Source: Sinomicrobium oceani (lineage in GTDB: Bacteria; Bacteroidota; Bacteroidia; Flavobacteriales; Flavobacteriaceae). From it: a stretch of DNA of 49,196 bases. Positions 294 to 25,005 of the stretch are shown one piece after another. Position 1 is the first letter of the stretch. Each line of letters opens with the position of its first letter. The stretch is taken from positions 1 to 49,196 of the forward strand of contig NZ_FPJE01000029.1 of the NCBI RefSeq assembly GCF_900119185.1. The letters run 5' to 3'. A program made the translations under genes and the position numbers. A model generated the notes under the pieces. The model was not told the origin of the DNA and searched no databases. It saw only the letters and a program-made list of their open reading frames with translations.

Positions 294-327
294 AAAAACG
301 GATTCGGGTGTGAGACGCTAACGAATC
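294..327 (-). terminator. Terminator-like hairpin at the end of the trp operon
   Basis: On the minus strand GATTCG (rc of 322-327) pairs with CGAATC (rc of 301-306), followed by a T5 run (294-298). The 5' arm overlaps the region around the trpA stop codon. The stem is only six base pairs with a 15-base loop, so termination may be incomplete. Confidence 0.5.
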
Positions 328-1085
328 GTACGGATAAAATCCGGGATGCCGTCTTTTCCCTTGTCATTCAGAGATTTGATGAAAGCAGAGCCTATAATGG
401 CGCCTTTAGCCAGATGGGTGGCGGCGCGGAATGTTTCTTCATTGCTGATCCCGAAGCCTACAATTTGAGGGTTTTTCAGCCGGAGGTTATGAATGCGCTC
501 AAAATACTGTTGCTGTTCTTCTCCGAAAGTACTTTTTGCTCCGGTAACACTGGCAGAGCTTACCATATAGATAAAACCGTCCGAGACCGAATCGATAAAG
601 CGTATTCTTTCGTCCGGGGTTTGCGGTGTAATGAGAAATATGTTGGCCAGGCCGTATTTTTCGAACATATCTTTGTACTCTTCTTCGTAAACATCCACCG
701 GAAGGTCCGGAATGATGAGTCCGTCTATCCCCGTGTCCGCACATTTTTTGCAGAAATCTTCCACGCCGTATTGCATAATGGGATTGAAATAGCCCATGAT
801 AATAAGGGGAATGTCTACAGTTTTACGGATATCCCGGAGCTGCTCGAATACCCTGGCTGTAGTCATGCCGTTTTTCAGGGCTTTCGTAGAGCTTTCCTGA
901 ATGGTGGGGCCATCGGCCAGCGGATCGCTGAAGGGGAGGCCTATCTCTATCATATCCACCCCGCTGTCCTGAAGGCTTTGGATGATGGAGACCGTGTCTT
1001 CCGGCCCCGGATAGCCTGCTGTGAAATATATGGACAGGATTTTTTTATCTTCCTGTAACTTTTTGTGTATCCTGTTGGTCGTCAT
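318..1085 (-). CDS. trpA: Tryptophan synthase alpha subunit
   Basis: TrpA cleaves indole-3-glycerol phosphate to indole and glyceraldehyde 3-phosphate and passes indole through a tunnel to TrpB. The 255-residue protein has the normal length of this TIM-barrel family. The segment MIEIGLPFSDPLADGPTIQ carries the catalytic Glu47 and Asp58, equivalent to Glu49 and Asp60 of the E. coli enzyme. FGI at about residue 215 and GSAF near 235 correspond to the phosphate-binding loops. It is the last gene of the minus-strand trp operon, 103 bases after trpB; that gap holds no other gene. The complementary-strand frames through this region are shadows. No key residue is missing, so a functional enzyme is expected. 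Confidence 0.97.
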   Translation of the reverse strand: MTTNRIHKKLQEDKKILSIYFTAGYPGPEDTVSIIQSLQDSGVDMIEIGLPFSDPLADGPTIQESSTKALKNGMTTARVFEQLRDIRKTVDIPLIIMGYFNPIMQYGVEDFCKKCADTGIDGLIIPDLPVDVYEEEYKDMFEKYGLANIFLITPQTPDERIRFIDSVSDGFIYMVSSASVTGAKSTFGEEQQQYFERIHNLRLKNPQIVGFGISNEETFRAATHLAKGAIIGSAFIKSLNDKGKDGIPDFIRTIR

Positions 1086-1188
1086 TCTTTATATTTTTTT
1101 TCGGTGCCTTTCAGTACCGTTGAGATTCGAAATATGATGTGCCCGGTTCCCGGAGGAAAGGTGTGTTCCCAAGCGGGTTTATCACGAT

Positions 1189-2421
1189 TTAAAGTCCGAA
1201 GTGATCGATATATGTGCTGAGGTCTTTGTCTCCCCTTCCGGAAAGGGCAACCACAACCACATCATCACTTTTAAATGAGGTATTTCCGAAAATGGCCAGG
1301 GCGTGGCTCGATTCTATAGCGGGAATAATACCTTCTGTTTTACACAGCTCGAGTCCGGCTTTCATGGCTTCGTCATCCGTGATCGATTTGAAAGTAGCAC
1401 GGCCCGAGGTACAAAGGTGGGCGTGCATAGGTCCTACTCCCGGATAGTCAAGCCCGGCTGAAATGGAATAAGGTTCGGTAATCTGTCCGTCAGGAGTTTG
1501 CATGAGCAGGGTCTTGCATCCGTGAATGATACCCTGATGTCCGAGGACGGAAGTTGCGGCGCTTTCCCCGGAATCAATTCCTTTTCCGGCAGCTTCCACG
1601 GCGATAATCTTCACTTGTTCTTCATCCAGAAAGTGATAAAAAGTTCCGGCAGCATTACTTCCTCCTCCGATGCAGGCTACCACATAATCGGGATTTTCGC
1701 GTCCTTCTTTTTCCTGGAGCTGAGCCTTGATCTCTTCGGATATTACGCTCTGGAATCTCGTCACCATATCCGGGTAGGGATGCGGGCCAATAGCCGACCC
1801 GATAATGTAGTGCGTATCTACCGGATTGTTGATCCAGTCGCGGATAGCCTCATTAGTGGCGTCTTTCAGGGTTTTACTCCCGGAGCGTGCGGGGCGGACT
1901 TCAGCGCCGAGCATTTTCATACGGGCTACATTCGGTGCCTGTCGTGCAATATCGATCTCTCCCATGTAAACAACACAATCCATTCCCATGAGTGCACAAA
2001 CCGTAGCGGTAGCCACGCCGTGCTGCCCGGCACCTGTTTCGGCGATGATCCTCGTTTTTCCAAGCCGTCTGGCCATGAGGATCTGGCCTATGGTGTTATT
2101 GATCTTATGGGCGCCGGTATGGTTGAGGTCTTCCCGTTTGAGATAGATTTTTGTGCCGTATTTTTCGGACATCCGTTTTGCAAAATAGAGCGGGGAAGGA
2201 CGACCTACATAATCTTTAAGGAGCTGATCGAATTCTTGCTTAAACGAAGGTTCGCTCATGACTTCGAGATATTTCCGTCGGAGTTCTTCGACATTCGGGT
2301 ATAACATCTCGGGGATAAACGCACCTCCGAATTCACCGTAGTAACCGCGTTCGCTGACATGATAAGCCCCTTTACCCGCATTTCCTCCGATCGGGGAGGC
2401 AATTTTTACTGGTGCTGACAT
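1189..2421 (-). CDS. trpB: Tryptophan synthase beta subunit
   Basis: TrpB is the PLP enzyme that condenses indole with serine to give tryptophan in the alpha2beta2 complex. The 410-residue sequence has the PLP-lysine motif [13 protein letters not shown] (Lys106) and the phosphate-binding GGGSNA loop near residue 250. A roughly 25-residue N-terminal tail precedes the conserved [10 protein letters not shown] start of the family. This is the standard TrpB1 type that pairs with a TrpA. Its ATG lies inside the 3' end of trpF (16-base overlap), so the two are probably translationally coupled. It shares the trp leader attenuator with the rest of the operon. Confidence 0.97.
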
Positions 2422-3083
2422 AATATTTTTGATTTAAATTCTTGTAATTGTTTTGTGTTCTTCCTGCCAGGCTCCGTTTCGAACCTGCTGTTTACATCGA
2501 TAGCGTGGCATAGCGCGGCCACTTTGTTATACCCCGGACTGTTCAGGAATCCGGTGATCAGTCCGGTTTCTTCCGGTCCGATTCCTCCGCTCAGGAAAAA
2601 GGGTTTCTCCGAAGGGTAATTCCGGAAGACACCCCAGTCGAACGTGTAACCGTTTCCTCCGGGTTGCTCGCCTTTGGTGTCGAAGAGAAAATAATCCACA
2701 TCATCTTCGAAAGGGTGCAACCGACTAAAATCGAATTGGTCTTTTACCGAAAATACTTTGATGATTTCCACTGCTGGTAAAACCTGCCGGAGTTCCCGGC
2801 AGAATACCGCATGTTCCCCGCCGTGAAGCTGCACGGCCTGTAATTGATATTGCGTGGCTTTTCGGGTTATCTCATGTATGGTCGCATTGACGAATACCCC
2901 GGTTTTTTTTATTTTCCCGGGAATCTCCGGAATAATTCCGTCGAAATATCGCGGAGATTTGTCATAAAAAATAAAGCCGAGGTAGTCGGGCCCAAGCGCA
3001 GCGACCTCCAGGATGTTTTCCGGGTATTTCATGCCGCACACTTTGAGTAGTGGTTGATGGTGATATGCTGAATGTTCGGCCAT
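2406..3083 (-). CDS. trpF: Phosphoribosylanthranilate isomerase
   Basis: TrpF performs the Amadori rearrangement of phosphoribosylanthranilate to CdRP, the third step after anthranilate. The 225-residue TIM barrel has the N-terminal [11 protein letters not shown] motif with the catalytic Cys16. The segment [19 protein letters not shown] contains the family's catalytic aspartate, and FLSGGIGPE is a phosphate loop. It is a free-standing protein, not fused to TrpC as in enterobacteria. The start codon directly follows the trpC stop codon and the end overlaps trpB by 16 bases, showing tight packing in the middle of the operon. Confidence 0.95.
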
Positions 3084-3872
3084 TTAACGGAGGATGTCTG
3101 TAATAAATGCACCGGCGCTCCGGCCGGGATCTTCTGTTTTCATAAAGTTTTCTCCTACCAGAAAGCCCTCGTAGCCATATTGTTGCAGGTCTTTTATAGT
3201 AGCCGGATCACTGATGCCGCTTTCGGATACTTTGACGAACTCATCGGGGATGATGCCGGAGAGTTGTTTACTGGTATTGATACTGACCTCGAAAGTTTTC
3301 AGATTACGGTTGTTTACCCCGAGCATATCGATACCGGGCATAATGGATTTGCGGAGTTCTTCTTCGTTATGAACTTCGAGCAGTACATCGAGCCCGAGCG
3401 ATTTGGCAAATCCGGAAAGGAATTTAATCTCTTCTTTGGTCAGGACCGCGGCAATAAGAAGTATGACATCTGCTCCATATGCCCTGGCTTCGAGGAGCTG
3501 ATACTCGTCCATGATGAACTCTTTTCGGAGCAGGGGAAGGGTAGTGGCTGCCCTGGCCTGTAACAGGTCGTCGAGCGATCCGCCGAAATATTTGCCATCG
3601 GTAAGTACCGACATACCACATACTCCTGCGTTTTCATATCCTGCGGCTACATCAGCAACACTCAAGGCCTGGTTTATTACGGCCCTTGACGGCGAACGCC
3701 TTTTGTGTTCGGCAATAATACCGGATTTGCTGGCTTTCAGTTTGCCCGCAAGCGATGTTGTTGTACGGCTAAAAAGGACAGCGTTTTCCAGTTGAGAGAC
3801 CGGGACTATACTTTTTTTGAGTTCGACCTCTCTGCGTTTATCAGCTATGATCTTGTCTAAGATGTTAGACAT
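3084..3872 (-). CDS. trpC: Indole-3-glycerol phosphate synthase
   Basis: TrpC closes the indole ring, converting CdRP to indole-3-glycerol phosphate with loss of CO2 and water. The 262-residue protein has the normal single-domain length. Diagnostic segments include AEHKRRSPSRAVI near residues 55-65 (catalytic lysine and substrate loop), LLRKEFIMDEYQ near 114-125, DVLLEVHNEEEL near 160, and GVNNRNLKTF and SESGIS further on. It lies 46 bases after trpD and abuts trpF without a gap. No fusion, truncation or lost motif was seen. Confidence 0.96.
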   Translation of the reverse strand: MSNILDKIIADKRREVELKKSIVPVSQLENAVLFSRTTTSLAGKLKASKSGIIAEHKRRSPSRAVINQALSVADVAAGYENAGVCGMSVLTDGKYFGGSLDDLLQARAATTLPLLRKEFIMDEYQLLEARAYGADVILLIAAVLTKEEIKFLSGFAKSLGLDVLLEVHNEEELRKSIMPGIDMLGVNNRNLKTFEVSINTSKQLSGIIPDEFVKVSESGISDPATIKDLQQYGYEGFLVGENFMKTEDPGRSAGAFITDILR

Positions 3873-3918
3873 AAGGTTCTGTTTTTAAGGTTCCTGATAA
3901 TTAATATTTGTTTGTCGT

Positions 3919-4911
3919 TTACCTGCTGATTTCCTGTAGTTTGCGGAGGGATTGCAGAGCCTTTCCGGAGAACAGGCTTTCCTTTGCCATATCGTACCCC
4001 TCCTTTGGAGTGAGGTCTTTTGCGGTGGCAATGGCCATTCCTGCATTGGCGCAGACTACATTGTTCTGGGCTTCTGTTCCTTTTCCGCTGATAACGTCCA
4101 TAAAAATGGCAGCCGATGCTTCTATGGTTTCACCTCCTTTAATAGCCGCACTGTCCAGGCTGTTCACCCCGAAGTCTTCCGGGGTAAGCATTTGTTCGGA
4201 GTTGTTGCGGATTGCTTTGGCCGGACCGGTGAGTGAAAGTTCGTCATACCCGTCGAGCGCGTGCAATATGGTATAGTTTTTATCGGTATTCTGATAGAGA
4301 TATCCGTACATTCTTGCAAGTTCGAGGTTGAATACCCCGACCATCTGGTTTTTGGGAAACGCTGGATTCACCATAGGGCCGAGCATATTGAAAAATGTTT
4401 TTACGGCAAGCTCTTTACGGATCGGACCGACGTTTTTCATGGCCGGGTGGAAGAGCGGTGCGTGAAGGACACAGATATTGGTTTTGTCAATAGAACGTTT
4501 CAGGAAATCGGGATCGTTTGAGAATTTGATACCCAGGAATTCCATAACATTGCTGGAGCCGCATTTAGAGGAAACACCGTAATTACCGTGTTTGGTAACC
4601 GGAATTCCGGCCCCTGCCGTGATGAACGATGCCAGTGTGGAAATATTGAATGTGTCTTTTCCGTCTCCACCGGTTCCGCACAGGTCAATAGCTTCATAGC
4701 CGTCCAGTTCTACGGCGATGCAGAGTTCCAGAAGCGCATCGCGAAAACCTTCCAGTTCTTCTACGGTTATACTCCGCATCATATAGACCGTTAAAAATGC
4801 TGCGATCTGGCTGGTGTTGTATGACCCTTGTGAAATATTAACCAATACGTTCCTGGCCTCTTCCTTGGAGATGGTTTCGTGGTTGATCAGTCTGTTTAGT
4901 ATGGCTTTCAT
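3919..4911 (-). CDS. trpD: Anthranilate phosphoribosyltransferase
   Basis: TrpD transfers phosphoribose from PRPP to anthranilate. The 330-residue protein has the family length. The glycine-rich PRPP loop LCGTGGDGKDTFNIST lies near residues 78-93, KHGNYGVSSKCGSSNVMEFLG near 108-128, and the RKELAVKTFFNMLGPMVNP segment near 165-183. The four-helix N-terminal domain is complete. It follows trpG after a 123-base gap that contains short heptamer repeats able to fold (4925-4960). It is a separate gene, not the TrpGD fusion found in enterobacteria. Confidence 0.96.
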   Translation of the reverse strand: MKAILNRLINHETISKEEARNVLVNISQGSYNTSQIAAFLTVYMMRSITVEELEGFRDALLELCIAVELDGYEAIDLCGTGGDGKDTFNISTLASFITAGAGIPVTKHGNYGVSSKCGSSNVMEFLGIKFSNDPDFLKRSIDKTNICVLHAPLFHPAMKNVGPIRKELAVKTFFNMLGPMVNPAFPKNQMVGVFNLELARMYGYLYQNTDKNYTILHALDGYDELSLTGPAKAIRNNSEQMLTPEDFGVNSLDSAAIKGGETIEASAAIFMDVISGKGTEAQNNVVCANAGMAIATAKDLTPKEGYDMAKESLFSGKALQSLRKLQEISR

Positions 4912-4924
4912 TATTGTTTTTTTA

Positions 4925-4960
4925 TCCGAAGTCCGAAGTATAAAGCCGGAGTTCGGAGTT
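4925..4960. repeat. Paired heptamer repeats in the trpG-trpD gap
   Basis: TCCGAAG occurs twice in tandem (4925-4931, 4932-4938) and CGGAGTT twice in tandem (4947-4953, 4954-4960), with eight bases between. The two arrays are imperfectly complementary, so the mRNA can form a short mismatched hairpin between trpG and trpD. Function unknown. Confidence 0.6.
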
Positions 4961-5034
4961 ATTTGATGTTTTTCTTCAGTACCATCATCATATCGGATGA
5001 TTTATTTTCGCTCCGGACTTGTGACTTCCTGCTA

Positions 5035-5616
5035 TTAGCTGTTACCGCTTTTAAGCCAGTTTTTCAATATTTTTTTGCCATCCGGTGTGAGGACGGATTC
5101 GGGGTGATACTGTACTCCTTTTACATCGTATTCGCGGTGACGAAGCGACATCACCTGTCCGTTCTCGTCGAAAGAAGTGGCTTCGAGCGTATCGGGAAGT
5201 TCCGGGGCTACTACCCACGAATGGTAGCGGCCGACTTCAATGTCTTTATCGAGGCCTTCGAAAAGAGGTTCGTCTTTTACGATAATCTTTACGGTAGTAG
5301 CTACACCGTGATACACCTTGTTCAGGTTAATGATCTTTCCGCCGAAGACTTCGCCTATGGCCTGCTGGCCGAGACAAACCCCGAGAATGCTCTTTGTCGG
5401 AGCGTATTTCCGGATGATGTCTTTGAGAAGGCCGGCTTCGTCGGGGATTCCGGGCCCCGGAGACAGTAATATTTTGTCAAAATCTTCGGCTTCTTCCAGC
5501 AGGAGCTGGTCATTACGCTTTACGGTAACTTCTCCTCCGAGGTCTTCGAGATAATGTACGAGGTTGTATGTGAAACTGTCGTAATTATCGATAACCAGTA
5601 TTTTCTGTGTTTTCAT
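5035..5616 (-). CDS. trpG: Anthranilate synthase glutaminase subunit
   Basis: TrpG hydrolyses glutamine and supplies ammonia to TrpE for anthranilate synthesis. The class I glutamine amidotransferase fold is clear: VIDNYDSFTYNLVHYLE at the N terminus, the LLSPGPGIP oxyanion strand near residue 55, nucleophile Cys81 in GVCLGQQAIGE, and the His-Glu pair in VQYHPESVLT near the C terminus. At 193 residues it is a stand-alone subunit. A GTG lies one codon before the chosen ATG (5616) and would add one residue. It follows trpE by 32 bases. It could in principle also serve folate synthesis (PabA role), but position argues for Trp. Confidence 0.95.
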   Translation of the reverse strand: MKTQKILVIDNYDSFTYNLVHYLEDLGGEVTVKRNDQLLLEEAEDFDKILLSPGPGIPDEAGLLKDIIRKYAPTKSILGVCLGQQAIGEVFGGKIINLNKVYHGVATTVKIIVKDEPLFEGLDKDIEVGRYHSWVVAPELPDTLEATSFDENGQVMSLRHREYDVKGVQYHPESVLTPDGKKILKNWLKSGNS

Positions 5617-5648
5617 CACTTTGCTGTTCTTGTATTGATAGGACGTGA

Positions 5649-7043
5649 TTAAATGCTTTCGGCCAAGTCCATGGCTTTGTTAAGTGCCCCGAGTTTATTA
5701 AAGACCTCCTGTAATTCGCTTTCGGGACTCGATTCGGAGACGATCCCTGCCCCCGCCTGATAATGAAGCCTGTGATTTTTGCTGAGAAAGGTCCGGATCA
5801 TGATGGCATGATTAAAGTTGCCTTCAAAATCCATAAACCCAATGGCTCCGCCATAAAAGTCCCGGTTACAGTTTTCGTACTTGTCGATGAGCTGCATGGC
5901 CATATGTTTGGGAGCCCCGCTGAGTGTACCCGCAGGAAACGTATCGGCGACAACCTGCATGGTAGAGGCCTTTTCATGAAGTTTACCGGTTACCTTAGAG
6001 ACAAGGTGGATGACATGCGAGAAGAATTGTACTTCCCGGTAGGTCTCTACTTTGACATGATGTCCGTGCCGGCTCAGATCGTTACGCGCAAGGTCTACAA
6101 GCATTACATGCTCGGCATTTTCCTTGGCATCTTCGGCCAGTTGCCTGGCCAGAACCGTATCCTGTTCGTCATTTCCGGTACGGCGGAAGGTTCCGGCTAT
6201 GGGGTGTATCTCTGCTTTTCTGTCTTTGACAACGAGCTGTGCTTCCGGTGAAGAACCAAAGATCTTAAAGTTACCATAGTCGAAAAAGAAGAGGTAAGGA
6301 GAGGGGTTTATACTTCTCAGGGCACGGTACACATTAAATTCGTCTCCTTTGAATTCCTGGGAGAATCTTCTGGATAATACAAGTTGGAAGACATCGCCGC
6401 GATAACAGTGTTTTTTGGCGTATTCCACACTTTTTTTGTATTCCTCATCGGTGAGATTGGATACGGGAGCCCCGGTTTTGAAAAAATTGTACGTGGCGAA
6501 ATTTTTGGACTGGAGCAATTGCTCGATCTCCGGGATATTATTGGTGCCGTCCGTACTGTGACAGAAAATATAAGCCTCGTTTTTAAAATGATTGATGGCT
6601 ATGATGTTCTGATATACGGCATAATAAATGTCAGGGATGTCCAGTGTGTCTTCCTTGCGGGAGATCTCAATATCCTCGAAATGTCGGACACCGTCATAGG
6701 CAATGTAACCGAAAAGCCCTTTGTTGATAAACTTAAACCCGTTGTCTTCGGTCTGGAAAGCACGGGCAAAATCATGTATGGCCTGGGGAACGTCGGTGTT
6801 TTTTTCTATGTCGGTCTGTGCGCTCTTACCGTCCGGATAGGAGGTGGTGATGATCCCTTTTTTCACCTCTATACTGGCTATGGGATTGCAGCATATATAA
6901 GAGAAGCTGTTGTTGTTGGCGTGATAATCGCTGCTTTCCAGCAGGAGGCTGCCGGGATACCTGTCTCTTATCTTAAGGTAAACGCTGACCGGCGTTATCG
7001 TATCTGCGAGTATTTGTTTGTAATGTGTGGTTAAATGTATCAT
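5649..7043 (-). CDS. trpE: Anthranilate synthase component I
   Basis: TrpE makes anthranilate from chorismate, using ammonia from TrpG. The 464-residue protein has the N-terminal feedback domain with LLESS near residue 35, the tryptophan-binding element whose mutation relieves feedback inhibition in other bacteria. The C-terminal chorismate-binding domain has FQLVLSRRFSQ, FGSSPEAQLVV, HPIAGTFRR, DLARNDLSRHG, ATFPAGTLSGAPK-type and GAGIVSESSPESEL motifs. As the first structural gene of the operon it is directly controlled by the leader attenuator ending about 33 bases upstream. Both known layers of control, feedback and attenuation, are therefore present. Confidence 0.97.
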   Translation of the reverse strand: MIHLTTHYKQILADTITPVSVYLKIRDRYPGSLLLESSDYHANNNSFSYICCNPIASIEVKKGIITTSYPDGKSAQTDIEKNTDVPQAIHDFARAFQTEDNGFKFINKGLFGYIAYDGVRHFEDIEISRKEDTLDIPDIYYAVYQNIIAINHFKNEAYIFCHSTDGTNNIPEIEQLLQSKNFATYNFFKTGAPVSNLTDEEYKKSVEYAKKHCYRGDVFQLVLSRRFSQEFKGDEFNVYRALRSINPSPYLFFFDYGNFKIFGSSPEAQLVVKDRKAEIHPIAGTFRRTGNDEQDTVLARQLAEDAKENAEHVMLVDLARNDLSRHGHHVKVETYREVQFFSHVIHLVSKVTGKLHEKASTMQVVADTFPAGTLSGAPKHMAMQLIDKYENCNRDFYGGAIGFMDFEGNFNHAIMIRTFLSKNHRLHYQAGAGIVSESSPESELQEVFNKLGALNKAMDLAESI

Positions 7044-7075
7044 TGTTCTTTCAAAGTTATATAGCGTACGGAAAA

Positions 7076-7108
7076 CAAAAAAGGCTTGTCGTGATTGACA
7101 AGCCTTTT
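7076..7108 (-). terminator. trp attenuator terminator
   Basis: On the minus strand GGCTTGTC (rc 7097-7104) and GACAAGCC (rc 7083-7090) form a perfect 8-bp stem, extended by A/T pairs, with a six-base loop and a following T6 run. It lies between the Trp-rich leader peptide gene and trpE. A leader segment GUCGUGA, next to the leader stop codon, is complementary to UCACGAC in the loop and 3' arm, giving a candidate antiterminator pairing (inference). Confidence 0.88.
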
Positions 7109-7140
7109 GTATTTTGGTTTTAAAAATACTTAACAGGGTC

Positions 7141-7203
7141 TTAGCTCACGACGTTCTGACGTAAGTTGCTCCACCACCAAGTATTGTTTAAAATGTTGTG
7201 CAT
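7141..7203 (-). CDS. trpL: Trp operon leader peptide with three consecutive Trp codons
   Basis: This ATG-to-TAA frame encodes 20 residues, with TGG TGG TGG at residues 9-11 inside NNTWWWSNL. Such runs of the regulated amino acid are the hallmark of ribosome-mediated attenuation. It lies 12 bases or so after a good promoter and about 30 bases before the terminator in front of trpE. CUUACG (codons 14-15) can pair with CGUGAG near the stop codon as a pause hairpin, and GUCGUGA can instead pair with the terminator loop. When charged tRNA-Trp is scarce, a ribosome stalled on the Trp codons would free GUCGUGA and disfavour the terminator. The peptide itself probably has no function beyond this. Confidence 0.92.
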   Translation of the reverse strand: MHNILNNTWWWSNLRQNVVS

Positions 7204-7219
7204 TTGATTTTGTTTGCTA

Positions 7220-7249
7220 CAAATATAGAAAGGAAAACGATAATTACAA
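7220..7249 (-). promoter_or_regulatory. trp operon promoter
   Basis: On the minus strand a -33 TTG (rc 7247-7249) is 19 bases from a perfect -7 box TATATTTG (rc 7220-7227), matching the Bacteroidota housekeeping sigma consensus TTG-N17-23-TAnnTTTG. The inferred transcript would begin only about 10 bases before the leader peptide ATG. Confidence 0.8.
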
Positions 7250-7289
7250 GCTGCAAAATGCTTTTATAACAATTTTTTAGCTGAGATTT

Positions 7290-7328
7290 AAAAAAAAGGT
7301 CCTTTTTGAGAGCAAAAGGACCCTTTTT
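7290..7328. terminator. Terminator after yceI, bidirectional
   Basis: GGTCCTTTT (7298-7306) pairs with AAAAGGACC (7314-7322), flanked by A7 on the left and T6 on the right. It ends the minus-strand marR-nitroreductase-yceI transcript and separates it from the trp promoter. Confidence 0.85.
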
Positions 7329-7353
7329 TGTCATAGGTATTTTTCTGCTTTAC

Positions 7354-7932
7354 TTAGAAATTCAGATCGACAACCAGGTCGAATTCATCGTAAATGGTTT
7401 TGTCTCCAAGATTTTTGAAAAAGCTACCGGAATTGTACTTAACGTCATACTTACTTCGGTCAATTTTTATCGCTCCCGTTGCTTTATTTCCGTAAACAGA
7501 AAGTTCGAAACTTACCGGATGGGTTTTTTCTTTAATAGTAAGGTCTCCTGTTACTTTATAAGCATTTTTTCCGGTAGATTTTACTTTGGTGATCACCATT
7601 TTGGCTGTAGGATACTTTTGTACATCGAAAAAGTCTTCGGACTTCAGGTGGCCGTCAAGTTTATCTTTGTATTCACCTTCAAGGTCGGTAGCACTGATCG
7701 TGGTAAGATCTACTACGAATTCTCCTCCTGTAAGCTTATCACCTTCAAAAACAAGATGTCCTTCTTTGATGTCTACTACACCTTCGTGAGAACCGGTTAC
7801 TTTATATCCTTTCCAGGTAACTTTACTGGTAGAGGTGTCAACGGTTTTCTTCTCTTTTTCGATAGTTGAAAAAGCTACGGCACTAAAAGCCACTGTGAGC
7901 GTTAAAGCTACTTTTGCAAATTTGTTTTTCAT
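7354..7932 (-). CDS. YceI family secreted protein
   Basis: The 192-residue protein begins with a signal peptide (Lys-rich start, then a hydrophobic stretch ending near residue 22 at AFS). The rest matches the YceI lipocalin-like beta-barrel family: STSKVTWKGYKVTGSHEG near the start, a GEFVVDLTTIS strand, HLKSEDFFDVQKYPTAKMVITKV in the middle and LTIKEKTHPVSFELSV. YceI proteins bind long isoprenoid lipids in the periplasm; the physiological role is often unclear. It lies 43 bases after the nitroreductase gene and is probably in its operon under the MarR regulator. No strong promoter was seen in front of it. Confidence 0.92.
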   Translation of the reverse strand: MKNKFAKVALTLTVAFSAVAFSTIEKEKKTVDTSTSKVTWKGYKVTGSHEGVVDIKEGHLVFEGDKLTGGEFVVDLTTISATDLEGEYKDKLDGHLKSEDFFDVQKYPTAKMVITKVKSTGKNAYKVTGDLTIKEKTHPVSFELSVYGNKATGAIKIDRSKYDVKYNSGSFFKNLGDKTIYDEFDLVVDLNF

Positions 7933-23270: not shown

Positions 23271-23353
23271 GGGGAGATACTCAAGCGGCCAACGAGGACA
23301 GACTGTAAATCTGTTGGTTTTTACCTTCGCAGGTTCGAATCCTGCTCTCCCCA
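23271..23353 (+). tRNA. tRNA-Tyr (GTA)
   Basis: Acceptor arms GGGGAGA/TCTCCCC with discriminator A. The anticodon arm ACAGA-CTGTAAA-TCTGT gives anticodon GTA. A long variable arm and T arm GCAGG-TTCGAAT-CCTGC fit a class II tRNA of 83 bases. CCA is not encoded. Confidence 0.96.
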
Positions 23354-23401
23354 CGAAAACTCGGTTTTTGGCCGGGAAAATGAAATACTGTTTTAAGATT
23401 T

Positions 23402-23474
23402 GCGGGAGTAGCTCAGTTGGTAGAGCGTCAGCCTTCCAAGCTGAATGTCGCGAGTTCGAACCTCGTCTCCCGCT
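23402..23474 (+). tRNA. tRNA-Gly (TCC)
   Basis: Acceptor arms GCGGGAG/CTCCCGC, discriminator T, D arm GCTC...GAGC, anticodon loop CTTCCAA giving TCC, and T arm with TTCGAAC. Length 73 bases. CCA is not encoded. Confidence 0.96.
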
Positions 23475-23536
23475 CTGAAAAGGAATAGATCATTTGTTTT
23501 TAAATGCTCTGTTCGGTTTTGCGAAACCAATTTAAT

Positions 23537-23608
23537 GCCGACGTAGCTCAGGGGTAGAGCGTTTCCTTGGTAAGGAAGAGGTCACGGGTTCAAATCCCGT
23601 CGTTGGCT
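23537..23608 (+). tRNA. tRNA-Thr (GGT)
   Basis: Acceptor arms GCCGACG/CGTTGGC (one G-T), discriminator T, anticodon loop CTTGGTA giving GGT, and T arm CGGG-TTCAAAT-CCCG. Length 72 bases. It ends 55 bases before tuf. Confidence 0.96.
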
Positions 23609-23663
23609 CACGGAGAACTTGAATTTGAACACTAATATATAACTAAGATTAAATTATTAAATC

Positions 23664-24851
23664 ATGGCAAAGGAAACATTTGATCGTTCCAAACCGCACT
23701 TGAATATTGGTACTATTGGACACGTGGATCATGGTAAGACAACTTTAACCGCGGCTATTACTAAGGTTTTGGCTGATGCTGGTTTTTCAGAAGCAAGAAG
23801 CTTTGATCAGATTGATAACGCTCCGGAAGAAAAAGAAAGAGGTATTACAATTAATACATCACACGTAGAATATCAGACTGCTAACCGTCACTACGCTCAC
23901 GTTGACTGTCCTGGTCACGCTGACTACGTTAAGAACATGGTTACCGGTGCTGCTCAGATGGACGGTGCTATTCTGGTGGTTGCTGCTACCGATGGTCCTA
24001 TGCCGCAAACTCGTGAGCACATCCTTCTTGGACGTCAGGTAGGTGTTCCGCGTATCGTAGTTTTCCTTAATAAAGTTGACCTTGTTGATGATGCCGAGCT
24101 TTTGGAGCTGGTTGATATGGAAGTAAGAGACCTTTTGAGTTTCTATGAGTATGATGGGGATAACGGTCCTGTAATTCAGGGTTCTGCTCTTGGTGCTCTT
24201 AACGGAGAGAAAGAGTGGGTTGATACCGTATTGGAATTGATGGAAGCTGTCGATAACTGGATCGAATTGCCTCAGAGAGATGTTGATAAGGATTTCTTAA
24301 TGCCGGTTGAAGACGTGTTTACTATTACAGGTCGTGGTACTGTGGCTACCGGTCGTATCGAAACTGGTGTTGCTAAAACTGGTGATCCTGTAGAGATCAT
24401 TGGTATGGGAGCTGAGAAATTGACTTCTACTATTACCGGGGTTGAGATGTTCCGTAAGATATTGGATAGAGGTGAAGCCGGAGATAACGTAGGTCTGCTT
24501 TTGAGAGGTATTGAGAAAACTCAGATCAAAAGAGGTATGGTTATTTGTAAGCCTGGATCTGTGAAGCCTCACGCTAAGTTTAAAGCAGAGGTTTATATCC
24601 TTAAGAAAGAAGAAGGTGGTCGTCACACTCCTTTCCATAACAACTACCGTCCTCAGTTCTATGTACGTACTACTGACGTAACAGGTACTATTTCTCTTCC
24701 TGACGGAGTAGAGATGGTTATGCCTGGAGATAACCTTACTATCACTGTTGAGCTTATTCAGCCTATCGCTCTTAACGTAGGTCTCCGATTTGCAATCCGT
24801 GAAGGAGGTAGAACAGTAGGTGCTGGTCAGGTAACTGAAATCTTAGACTAA
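23664..24851 (+). CDS. tuf: Elongation factor Tu
   Basis: EF-Tu delivers aminoacyl-tRNA to the ribosome as a GTP complex. The 395-residue protein has P-loop GHVDHGKTT, the DCPGHADY G3 motif, NKVDLVD (G4) and SAL (G5), followed by the two beta-barrel domains, ending [10 protein letters not shown]. Codon use is strongly biased (GGT, GCT, CGT, AAC), unlike its lower-expressed neighbours, as expected for a very highly expressed gene. It lies between tRNA-Thr and tRNA-Trp in the lineage-typical order and follows the tRNAs on one transcript. The GxxRQVGVP segment has no unusual residue that I can see. Confidence 0.99.
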
Positions 24852-24874
24852 TTACGGTCTTTAAATTATAAGTA

Positions 24875-24915
24875 AAAGCCGGAAGACGCCTTTTATAACA
24901 GGATCTTCCGGCTTT
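24875..24915 (+). repeat. Hairpin between tuf and tRNA-Trp
   Basis: AAAGCCGGAAGA (24875-24886) and TCTTCCGGCTTT (24904-24915) form a perfect 12-bp stem. No T run follows, because tRNA-Trp starts five bases later. It may be an RNA processing or mRNA-end protecting element rather than a terminator. Confidence 0.75.
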
Positions 24916-24919
24916 ACCA

Positions 24920-24990
24920 ACGGGTGTAGTTCAAGGGTAGAATAGCGGTCTCCAAAACCGTTGATGGGAGTTCGAATCTCTCCACCCGTG
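24920..24990 (+). tRNA. tRNA-Trp (CCA)
   Basis: Acceptor arms ACGGGTG/CACCCGT with discriminator G. The anticodon arm CGGT-CTCCAAA-ACCG gives CCA. The T arm is GGGAG-TTCGAAT-CTCTC. Length 71 bases. It is the tRNA that the trp attenuator at 7076-7249 would monitor. Confidence 0.96.
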
Positions 24991-25005
24991 CAAAGAAAAT
25001 AGAAG

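What the first reader, a model, noticed from the sequence alone, without database searches (positions are those of the whole stretch)
7076..7249. Classical trp attenuator with a WWW leader peptide in a Bacteroidota trp operon
Seen directly: promoter, a 20-codon leader with three consecutive TGG codons, a perfect 8-bp terminator with T run, then trpE. Leader segment GUCGUGA is complementary to UCACGAC in the terminator loop/3' arm, and CUUACG to CGUGAG, giving mutually exclusive folds. The candidate antiterminator overlaps the leader stop codon and only breaks the top of the terminator stem, so the mechanism differs in detail from the enteric 2:3 structure. Ribosome-mediated attenuation is established for enterobacteria; here it must work with ribosomes that hide their anti-Shine-Dalgarno.
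Basis: partly seen in the sequence, partly recalled or inferred. Interest (0 to 1): 0.75.

Follow-up and report, generated by a model that had tools for sequence, protein, structure and literature searches.

The report
Trp attenuator with loop-capturing antiterminator
The stretch in front of this bacterium's tryptophan genes belongs to a known family of RNA switches; comparison with relatives suggests that, when tryptophan is short, the RNA disarms its stop hairpin by pairing with the hairpin's loop, whereas the textbook gut-bacterium switch pairs with the hairpin's front arm.

Summary
In detail: promoter, 20-codon leader MHNILNNTWWWSNLRQNVVS*, terminator (12 bp, not 8), trpEGDCFBA. It is a member of Rfam RF01692, Bacteroid-trp (71.4 bits, cut-off 49), already likened in print to the E. 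coli attenuator (PMC6414381, passages). "Classical" needs one correction. E starts where a ribosome at the stop codon covers it in 147 of 150; predicted mean E:E' probability as E' emerges is 0.89 with a ribosome stalled at the first Trp codon, 0.02 at the stop. Likely mechanism: ribosome-mediated attenuation with a loop-capturing antiterminator. Not shown: the sense of E:E' and any Trp response. The completed terminator wins in every state, so the effect must be kinetic; without a ribosome the window's own E:E' is still predicted at 0.91, so default termination is not explained.

The parts
7247..7249 (-). -33 TTG of a Bacteroidota-type promoter, 19 nt from the -7 box
   Evidence: sequence; consensus TTTG/TAnnTTTG from PMC7366714 and PMC9723704 passages
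7220..7227 (-). -7 box TATATTTG; predicted transcription start near 7215, so a 5' UTR of about 12 nt before the leader ATG
   Evidence: box position -12 to -5 from PMC9723704 passage; start inferred, not measured
7141..7203 (-). leader ORF MHNILNNTWWWSNLRQNVVS*
   Evidence: sequence
7171..7179 (-). three consecutive Trp codons TGG TGG TGG (sensor)
   Evidence: WWW in 142 of 154 leaders
7174..7185 (-). 5' side of the Rfam outer stem P1 (AAUACUUGGUGG), overlaps the Trp codons
   Evidence: RF01692 alignment; duplex test over 150 leaders mean z -1.24, 41 in the best 5%
7160..7165 (-). 5' side of the protector hairpin (CUUACG), pairs with 7150-7145
   Evidence: duplex test over 150 leaders mean z -1.10, 24 in the best 5%
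7146..7152 (-). E: antiterminator 5' half GUCGUGA, ends two bases before the stop codon
7125..7138 (-). 3' side of outer stem P1 (CCCUGUUAAGUAUU)
7079..7108 (-). terminator hairpin AAAAGGCUUGUC(AAUCAC)GACAAGCCUUUU, followed by a U-rich tail to about 7072
   Evidence: over 150 leaders 97.8% of cells paired, 10 of 12 pairs with double changes
7088..7094 (-). E': UCACGAC, terminator loop plus first three bases of the 3' arm, complement of E
5649..7043 (-). trpE, first gene of trpEGDCFBA
318..5619 (-). trpG, trpD, trpC, trpF, trpB, trpA

Best explanation
A ribosome-mediated transcription attenuator of the trp operon (Rfam RF01692) whose antiterminator captures the terminator's loop and the tip of its 3' arm. 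Shown by sequence and comparison: leader ORF with Trp codons, terminator, E:E' pairing conserved in place and independent of the reading frame. Inferred: (1) enough charged tRNA-Trp: the ribosome runs on to the stop codon, covers E, the terminator forms, transcription stops before trpE. (2) Trp starvation: the ribosome stalls on WWW, whose end is 18 nt upstream of E in the window, and opens outer stem P1; free E pairs with E' as soon as it leaves the polymerase, before the rest of the 3' arm is made, so the terminator forms too late or only as a strained pseudoknot and transcription reads through. (3) Weakest step: without translation, P1 and the protector, made earlier, may hold E and favour termination; equilibrium folding does not support this for the window itself. 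The leader starts without a Shine-Dalgarno motif.
For: RF01692 match. E:E' helix in the best 5% of 100 shuffles in 137 of 150 leaders, best 1% in 116; terminator 5' arm 3 of 150. On alignment A1, 85.3% of cells paired (slid versions 20-52%), 34 cells with double changes against 9.8 +/- 3.9 shuffled, 0 of 500 shuffles reach any of the five measures. Variant pairs such as GUCGCAA:UUGCGAC (L082), GUCGUAAG:CUUGCGGC (L094), ACCGUGAG:CUUACGGU (L135), UUUGUGAG:CUCACAAC (L133, 7 of 8 paired). Position: last Trp codon to E 17-18 nt in 126 of 150; E starts within the footprint of a ribosome at the stop codon in 147 of 150, although E lies in different frames or, in one group, behind the stop codon. Mean P(E:E') as E' emerges 0.89 stalled at W1 (over 0.5 in 137 of 150), 0.91 at W3 (138), 0.02 at the stop (3), 0.48 without ribosome (74). 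The E..E' pattern hits 102 of 149 family genomes, its reversed control 6 of 149.
Against: With the full terminator transcribed its mean predicted probability is 0.97-1.00 in every ribosome state, so E:E' must work kinetically; nine base pairs of the terminator could still form beside E:E' as a pseudoknot. In the window without any ribosome P(E:E') is 0.91 as E' emerges (MFE -18.0 is the E:E' fold), against step 3. E' core is CACGAC in 123 of 150, so covariation rests on few changes: of 34 double-change cells 19 are in pair 49:151 and 6 in pair 42:158, whose 3' base also belongs to the terminator stem; among 27 variant leaders 18 pair better with their own loop than with consensus loops, 9 do not. 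13 of 150 do not form the in-register E:E' when stalled; L064, L079, L136 and L150 have another helix in the best 5%, L149 ranks 6, the other eight have none in the best 5%. RNAalifold on A1 predicts only the terminator. No expression data.
Confidence: 0.72

Rival explanations
1. Ordinary enteric-type attenuator: a segment freed by the stalled ribosome (the 3' side of P1, CCUGUUAAGUAUUUU) pairs with the terminator's 5' flank and arm (AAAAUACAAAAGG), and E:E' is secondary.
For: The window fold at E' emergence includes a GUAUUUU:AAAAUAC hairpin and pairs the GG of the 5' arm upstream; GG paired 0.89 when stalled at W1, 0.64 without ribosome, 0.42 with the ribosome at the stop, means over 150. 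hisG leaders of the family more often favour the 5' arm, and the pheA leader of this genome can by eye.
Against: That hairpin is no more stable than shuffles (mean z -0.12, 1 of 150 in the best 5%); helix with the 5' arm in the best 5% in 3 of 150.
Confidence: 0.1
2. E:E' has the opposite sense: as a pseudoknot it helps the terminator or slows polymerase, and the switch is made by P1 and the protector.
For: E:E' leaves nine terminator pairs intact, so coexistence is possible; without ribosome mean P(E:E') is still 0.48, and 0.91 in the window.
Against: E would then be covered just when Trp is plentiful and the ribosome has reached the stop codon, giving the wrong response for a biosynthetic operon (inference).
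Confidence: 0.1
3. A different Trp sensor (T-box, TRAP sites, riboswitch) or a plain constitutive terminator behind a leader peptide.
For: None beyond the lack of expression data.
Against: In the window only RF01692 and tRNAs reach an Rfam cut-off; the transcribed leader shows only two GAG/UAG triplets by eye, where B. subtilis TRAP binds 11 (PMC4027176, start of abstract in a listing); WWW or WW in 151 of 154 leaders.
Confidence: 0.04

Closest known systems
Rfam RF01692 Bacteroid-trp (Weinberg et al. 2010)
   Same: The window is a member: 71.4 bits over the full model, in front of trpE.
   Different: The Rfam model ends inside the terminator's 5' arm (last 14 positions AAAAAAGGCUUGUC) and so contains neither E' nor E:E'; it places the E region partly in an inner stem. 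The supplement of the 2010 paper was not read.
E. coli trp attenuator
   Same: Trp-codon leader, protector, terminator, ribosome position decides; ribosome at the stop masks the antiterminator half (recalled).
   Different: Here the supported helix is with the loop and 3' tip of the terminator, not the 5' arm; Bacteroidota promoter, few Shine-Dalgarno motifs, short distance from promoter to leader ATG.
his leader of the same bacterial family (hisG 5' element mentioned in PMC9723704, section 19)
   Same: Leader with a run of His codons and a terminator; in the window's genome too.
   Different: Of 29 scored, 15 have a 5'-arm helix in the best 5%, 6 a loop helix. In the window's own genome the best helix takes the last four bases of the 5' arm and the loop (rank 1), the pure 5'-arm helix ranks 15.
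LEU element of Actinobacteria (PMC1262725, passages)
   Same: Leader-peptide region that can form a pseudoknot or an alternative structure.
   Different: In front of leuA; its base stem pairs the Leu codons with the leuA Shine-Dalgarno box.

Membership tests
RF01692 Bacteroid-trp | covariance-model score above the gathering cut-off | tested here: met
   71.4 against 49 bits, model 1-131
RF01692 Bacteroid-trp | lies in front of trp genes | tested here: met
   trpEGDCFBA follows; in relatives TrpE downstream in 145 of 154, TrpB in 3, TrpD-like read by eye in 5, contig end in 1
ribosome-mediated attenuator | short ORF with regulatory codons | tested here: met
   WWW
ribosome-mediated attenuator | intrinsic terminator before the first gene | tested here: met
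ribosome-mediated attenuator | conserved alternative pairing that overlaps the terminator and is masked by a ribosome at the stop codon | tested here: met
   E:E'; predicted, not measured
ribosome-mediated attenuator | alternative pairing excludes the terminator | tested here: inconclusive
   E:E' takes three of twelve terminator pairs in the window; the completed terminator wins in every state by equilibrium folding
ribosome-mediated attenuator | amino-acid-dependent readthrough | not testable with these tools
   needs RNA measurement
enteric trp leader (2:3 type) | antiterminator pairs with the terminator's 5' arm | tested here: not met
   3 of 150 leaders in the best 5%
enteric trp leader (Rfam) | match to an Rfam trp leader other than RF01692 | tested here: not met
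   none among the 14 matches at E up to 1 for 7040-7360
T-box or riboswitch | Rfam family at cut-off | tested here: not met
   only RF01692 and tRNAs in the window

The most novel reading that the evidence does not exclude
Bacteroidota trp attenuators use a distinct switching logic: the nascent transcript captures the terminator's loop and 3' tip through a pseudoknot-like E:E' helix, timed to the few bases between emergence of E' and completion of the 3' arm. This would be an antiterminator that wins only by timing, found in several families of the class and set apart from the 5'-arm design that his leaders of the same bacterial family more often show.
Probability: 0.6. Interest if true: 0.6.

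Novelty: new variant of a known kind. Interest (0 to 1): 0.45.

Why it matters
It proposes the missing half of a listed RNA family (the antiterminator of RF01692) and suggests that two attenuators in one bacterial family disarm their terminators in different ways. It also makes a question testable: whether ribosomes that make little use of Shine-Dalgarno pairing keep close enough to RNA polymerase in Bacteroidota to decide termination within a few nucleotides.

Tried and rejected
My first own candidate, a hairpin of the P1 3' side with AAAAUACAAAAGG (enteric 2:3), was tested on 150 leaders and is no better than shuffles. A test of P1 covariation at one position (letter before AUAC/AUAU against letter after GUAU) was mixed: among 85 scored A-A 31, A-U 28, C-A 12, C-G 7, A-G 2, five others; 20 more had no GUAU and the remaining 45 lacked the 5' motif. 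RNAalifold on A1 found only the terminator. In one search loci delivered by the genome search were read in the wrong orientation for minus-strand matches; corrected, and only the corrected set was used afterwards. ilvD upstream region: a terminator but no evident leader peptide. The UGGUAUGC:GUGUAUCA pairing that I noted for hisG was not the best helix and is dropped. Searches for a printed antiterminator of this family: (the last found nothing); no title or abstract start listed and no passage seen describes it, but the library is partial and supplements could not be read.

Full report
What is there. On the minus strand a Bacteroidota-type promoter (-33 TTG, -7 TATATTTG) is followed by a 20-codon leader with WWW, a 12-bp intrinsic terminator with a U-rich tail, and trpE at 7043, the first gene of trpEGDCFBA. 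The upstream YceI-domain gene (7354-7932) is separated from it by a terminator-like hairpin at 7298-7322 (reported on the plus strand; on the minus strand it also reads as a hairpin followed by T). Rfam finds RF01692, Bacteroid-trp, at 71.4 bits over its whole length. The stretch 7076-7223 folds better than all 200 shuffles, z -4.07. RF01692 matches at E up to 0.001 in 109 of 149 sampled genomes of the same family, 42 of 395 of the phylum, 17 of 198 of the order of G489 and 5 of 61 of the family of G505.

Prior print. RF01692 is a table entry in Weinberg et al. 2010 (PMC2864571, passages; its supplement was not read). PMC6414381 (passages) notes it in front of the trp operon of F. psychrophilum and compares it with E. 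coli. PMC9723704 (section 19 and passages) reports strong clues for leader-peptide attenuation of amino-acid operons. In the main text of Naville and Gautheret 2010 (PMC2965389) the strings bacteroid and flavobact at the start of a word do not occur. No passage seen describes an antiterminator for RF01692.

The pairing. 154 leaders from relatives were extracted and oriented. WWW is kept in 142, WW in 9, 3 did not parse. TrpE follows on the same strand in 145 of 154; of the other nine, three have TrpB, five a TrpD-like protein read by eye, one ends with its contig. For 150 of them the best ungapped helix between the stretch after the Trp codons and the terminator loop with its flanks was compared with 100 mononucleotide shuffles: 116 are in the best 1%, 137 in the best 5%. 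The same test against the terminator's 5' arm gives 3 of 150, median rank 62. On MAFFT alignment A1 E:E' has 85.3% of cells paired; slid by 1-3 columns 20-52%; 34 cells with changes on both sides against 9.8 +/- 3.9; no shuffle of 500 reaches any measure. The tool warns that related sequences can exceed such shuffles without structure. The terminator itself has 97.8% of cells paired and 62 double-change cells. Caveats: 123 of 150 share E' core CACGAC; of the 34 double changes 19 are in the last pair (49:151) and 6 in 42:158, whose 3' base is also in the terminator stem; 18 of 27 variants prefer their own loop to consensus loops and 9 do not.

Not a coding signal. In 84 of 150 leaders E starts 4 nt before the stop codon (UCG UGA, so the stop lies inside E), in 25 it starts 9 nt before, as in the window, in 15 it begins 5 nt after the first base of the stop (for example peptides ending CFRN). 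The same RNA motif in different frames and outside the ORF argues for RNA function. The gap from the last Trp codon to E is 17 or 18 nt in 126 of 150, range 11-21.

Switching. ViennaRNA folding with ribosome footprints masked, of transcripts ending where E' has just been made, gives mean P(E:E') 0.89 for a ribosome with W1 in the A site (over 0.5 in 137 of 150), 0.91 for W3 (138), 0.48 without ribosome (74), 0.02 with the ribosome at the stop codon (3). The contrast between stall and stop follows from the position of E; what is informative is that this position is kept. In the window the values are 0.99 (W1), 1.00 (W3), 0.00 (stop) and 0.91 without ribosome; the last speaks against a default off state by equilibrium, unless P1 and the protector, which are made earlier, hold E kinetically. 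In the window stalled at W1 the E:E' fold has -15.8 kcal/mol when E' has emerged; three nucleotides later it is still best (-17.0), five nucleotides later the terminator fold leads (-22.1 against -17.0). With the full transcript the terminator has mean probability 0.97-1.00 in all states. The switch must therefore be kinetic, as is generally held for attenuators (recalled). The protector (mean z -1.10, 24 of 150 in the best 5%) and P1 (mean z -1.24, 41 of 150) are mildly supported; a further hairpin next to the terminator is not (mean z -0.12, 1 of 150).

Genome-wide specificity. The pattern TGGTGG, gap, TCGTGA, gap, TCACGA occurs in 102 of 149 family genomes, its reversed control in 6; in the window's genome it occurs once. 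92 genomes have both the pattern and an RF01692 match at E up to 0.001, 10 only the pattern, 17 only RF01692. In G082 the two lie on different contigs; G118 has a further pattern match that looks unrelated.

Contrast. In the window's genome hisG has leader MNTIVLHHHHFYTCTQAR* and pheA has MTQTAYNWNFYFFFFYFFRGRSGRL*, each with a terminator. Of 49 family genomes with HisG among 60 searched, 30 loci were taken and 29 scored: the 5'-arm helix is in the best 5% in 15, the loop helix in 6. For the window's own hisG the best helix uses the last four bases of the 5' arm and the loop (rank 1), the pure 5'-arm helix ranks 15. So the trp design (loop and 3' tip, 5' arm 3 of 150) is not simply the general habit, but the his contrast is a tendency, not a rule.

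Translation start. 142 of 151 leaders have TAnnTTTG within 60 nt of the ATG (control pieces 125 of 3,778). The distance clusters at 5 nt (19 leaders, 22 at 5 or less) and about 17 nt; 16 in the window. With the box at -12 to -5, as found in F. psychrophilum (PMC9723704), this means 5' UTRs of about 0-1 and 12-13 nt; 4 of 151 have an SD-like motif. Start sites are inferred.

Verdict. A member of a known family with a covariation-backed antiterminator that is not described in the passages seen and that differs from the enteric one in its target. The direction of its effect and the Trp response remain to be measured.

Noticed in passing
L161 (G000:C33) and L164-L192: hisG leader peptides with runs of His codons and a terminator in 29 of 30 loci; the frequent UCAAGCG/UCAGGCG pairs with the terminator's 5' arm, an enteric-like design.
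   Followed up: partly
L162 (G000:C15): pheA leader MTQTAYNWNFYFFFFYFFRGRSGRL* with terminator; UCGGGAC near its stop codon can pair with the 5' arm GUCCCGG (pairing by eye).
   Followed up: no
promoter to leader ATG, window 7227-7201 and relatives: Bimodal spacing of the -7 box to the leader ATG (5 and about 17 nt): part of the family would have nearly leaderless leader peptides.
   Followed up: partly
L137, L138, L139, L140, L144: Leaders in front of trpD-like genes in another family show no loop helix in the best 5%; in L140 and L144 GGCAGCC could pair with the 5' arm GGUUGCC (by eye), which would be a change of antiterminator target within the phylum.
   Followed up: no
G020, G050, G054, G055, G086, G099, G105, G137, G138, G139: Genomes with the E..E' pattern but no RF01692 match at E up to 0.001 under the stricter filters: the Rfam search probably misses some members.
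   Followed up: no
window 7298-7322: Hairpin GGTCC...GGACC followed by T on both strands, between the YceI-domain gene and the trp promoter; perhaps a bidirectional terminator.
   Followed up: no
window 23271-24991: tRNA-Tyr, Gly, Thr and, further on, tRNA-Trp genes on the plus strand.
   Followed up: no
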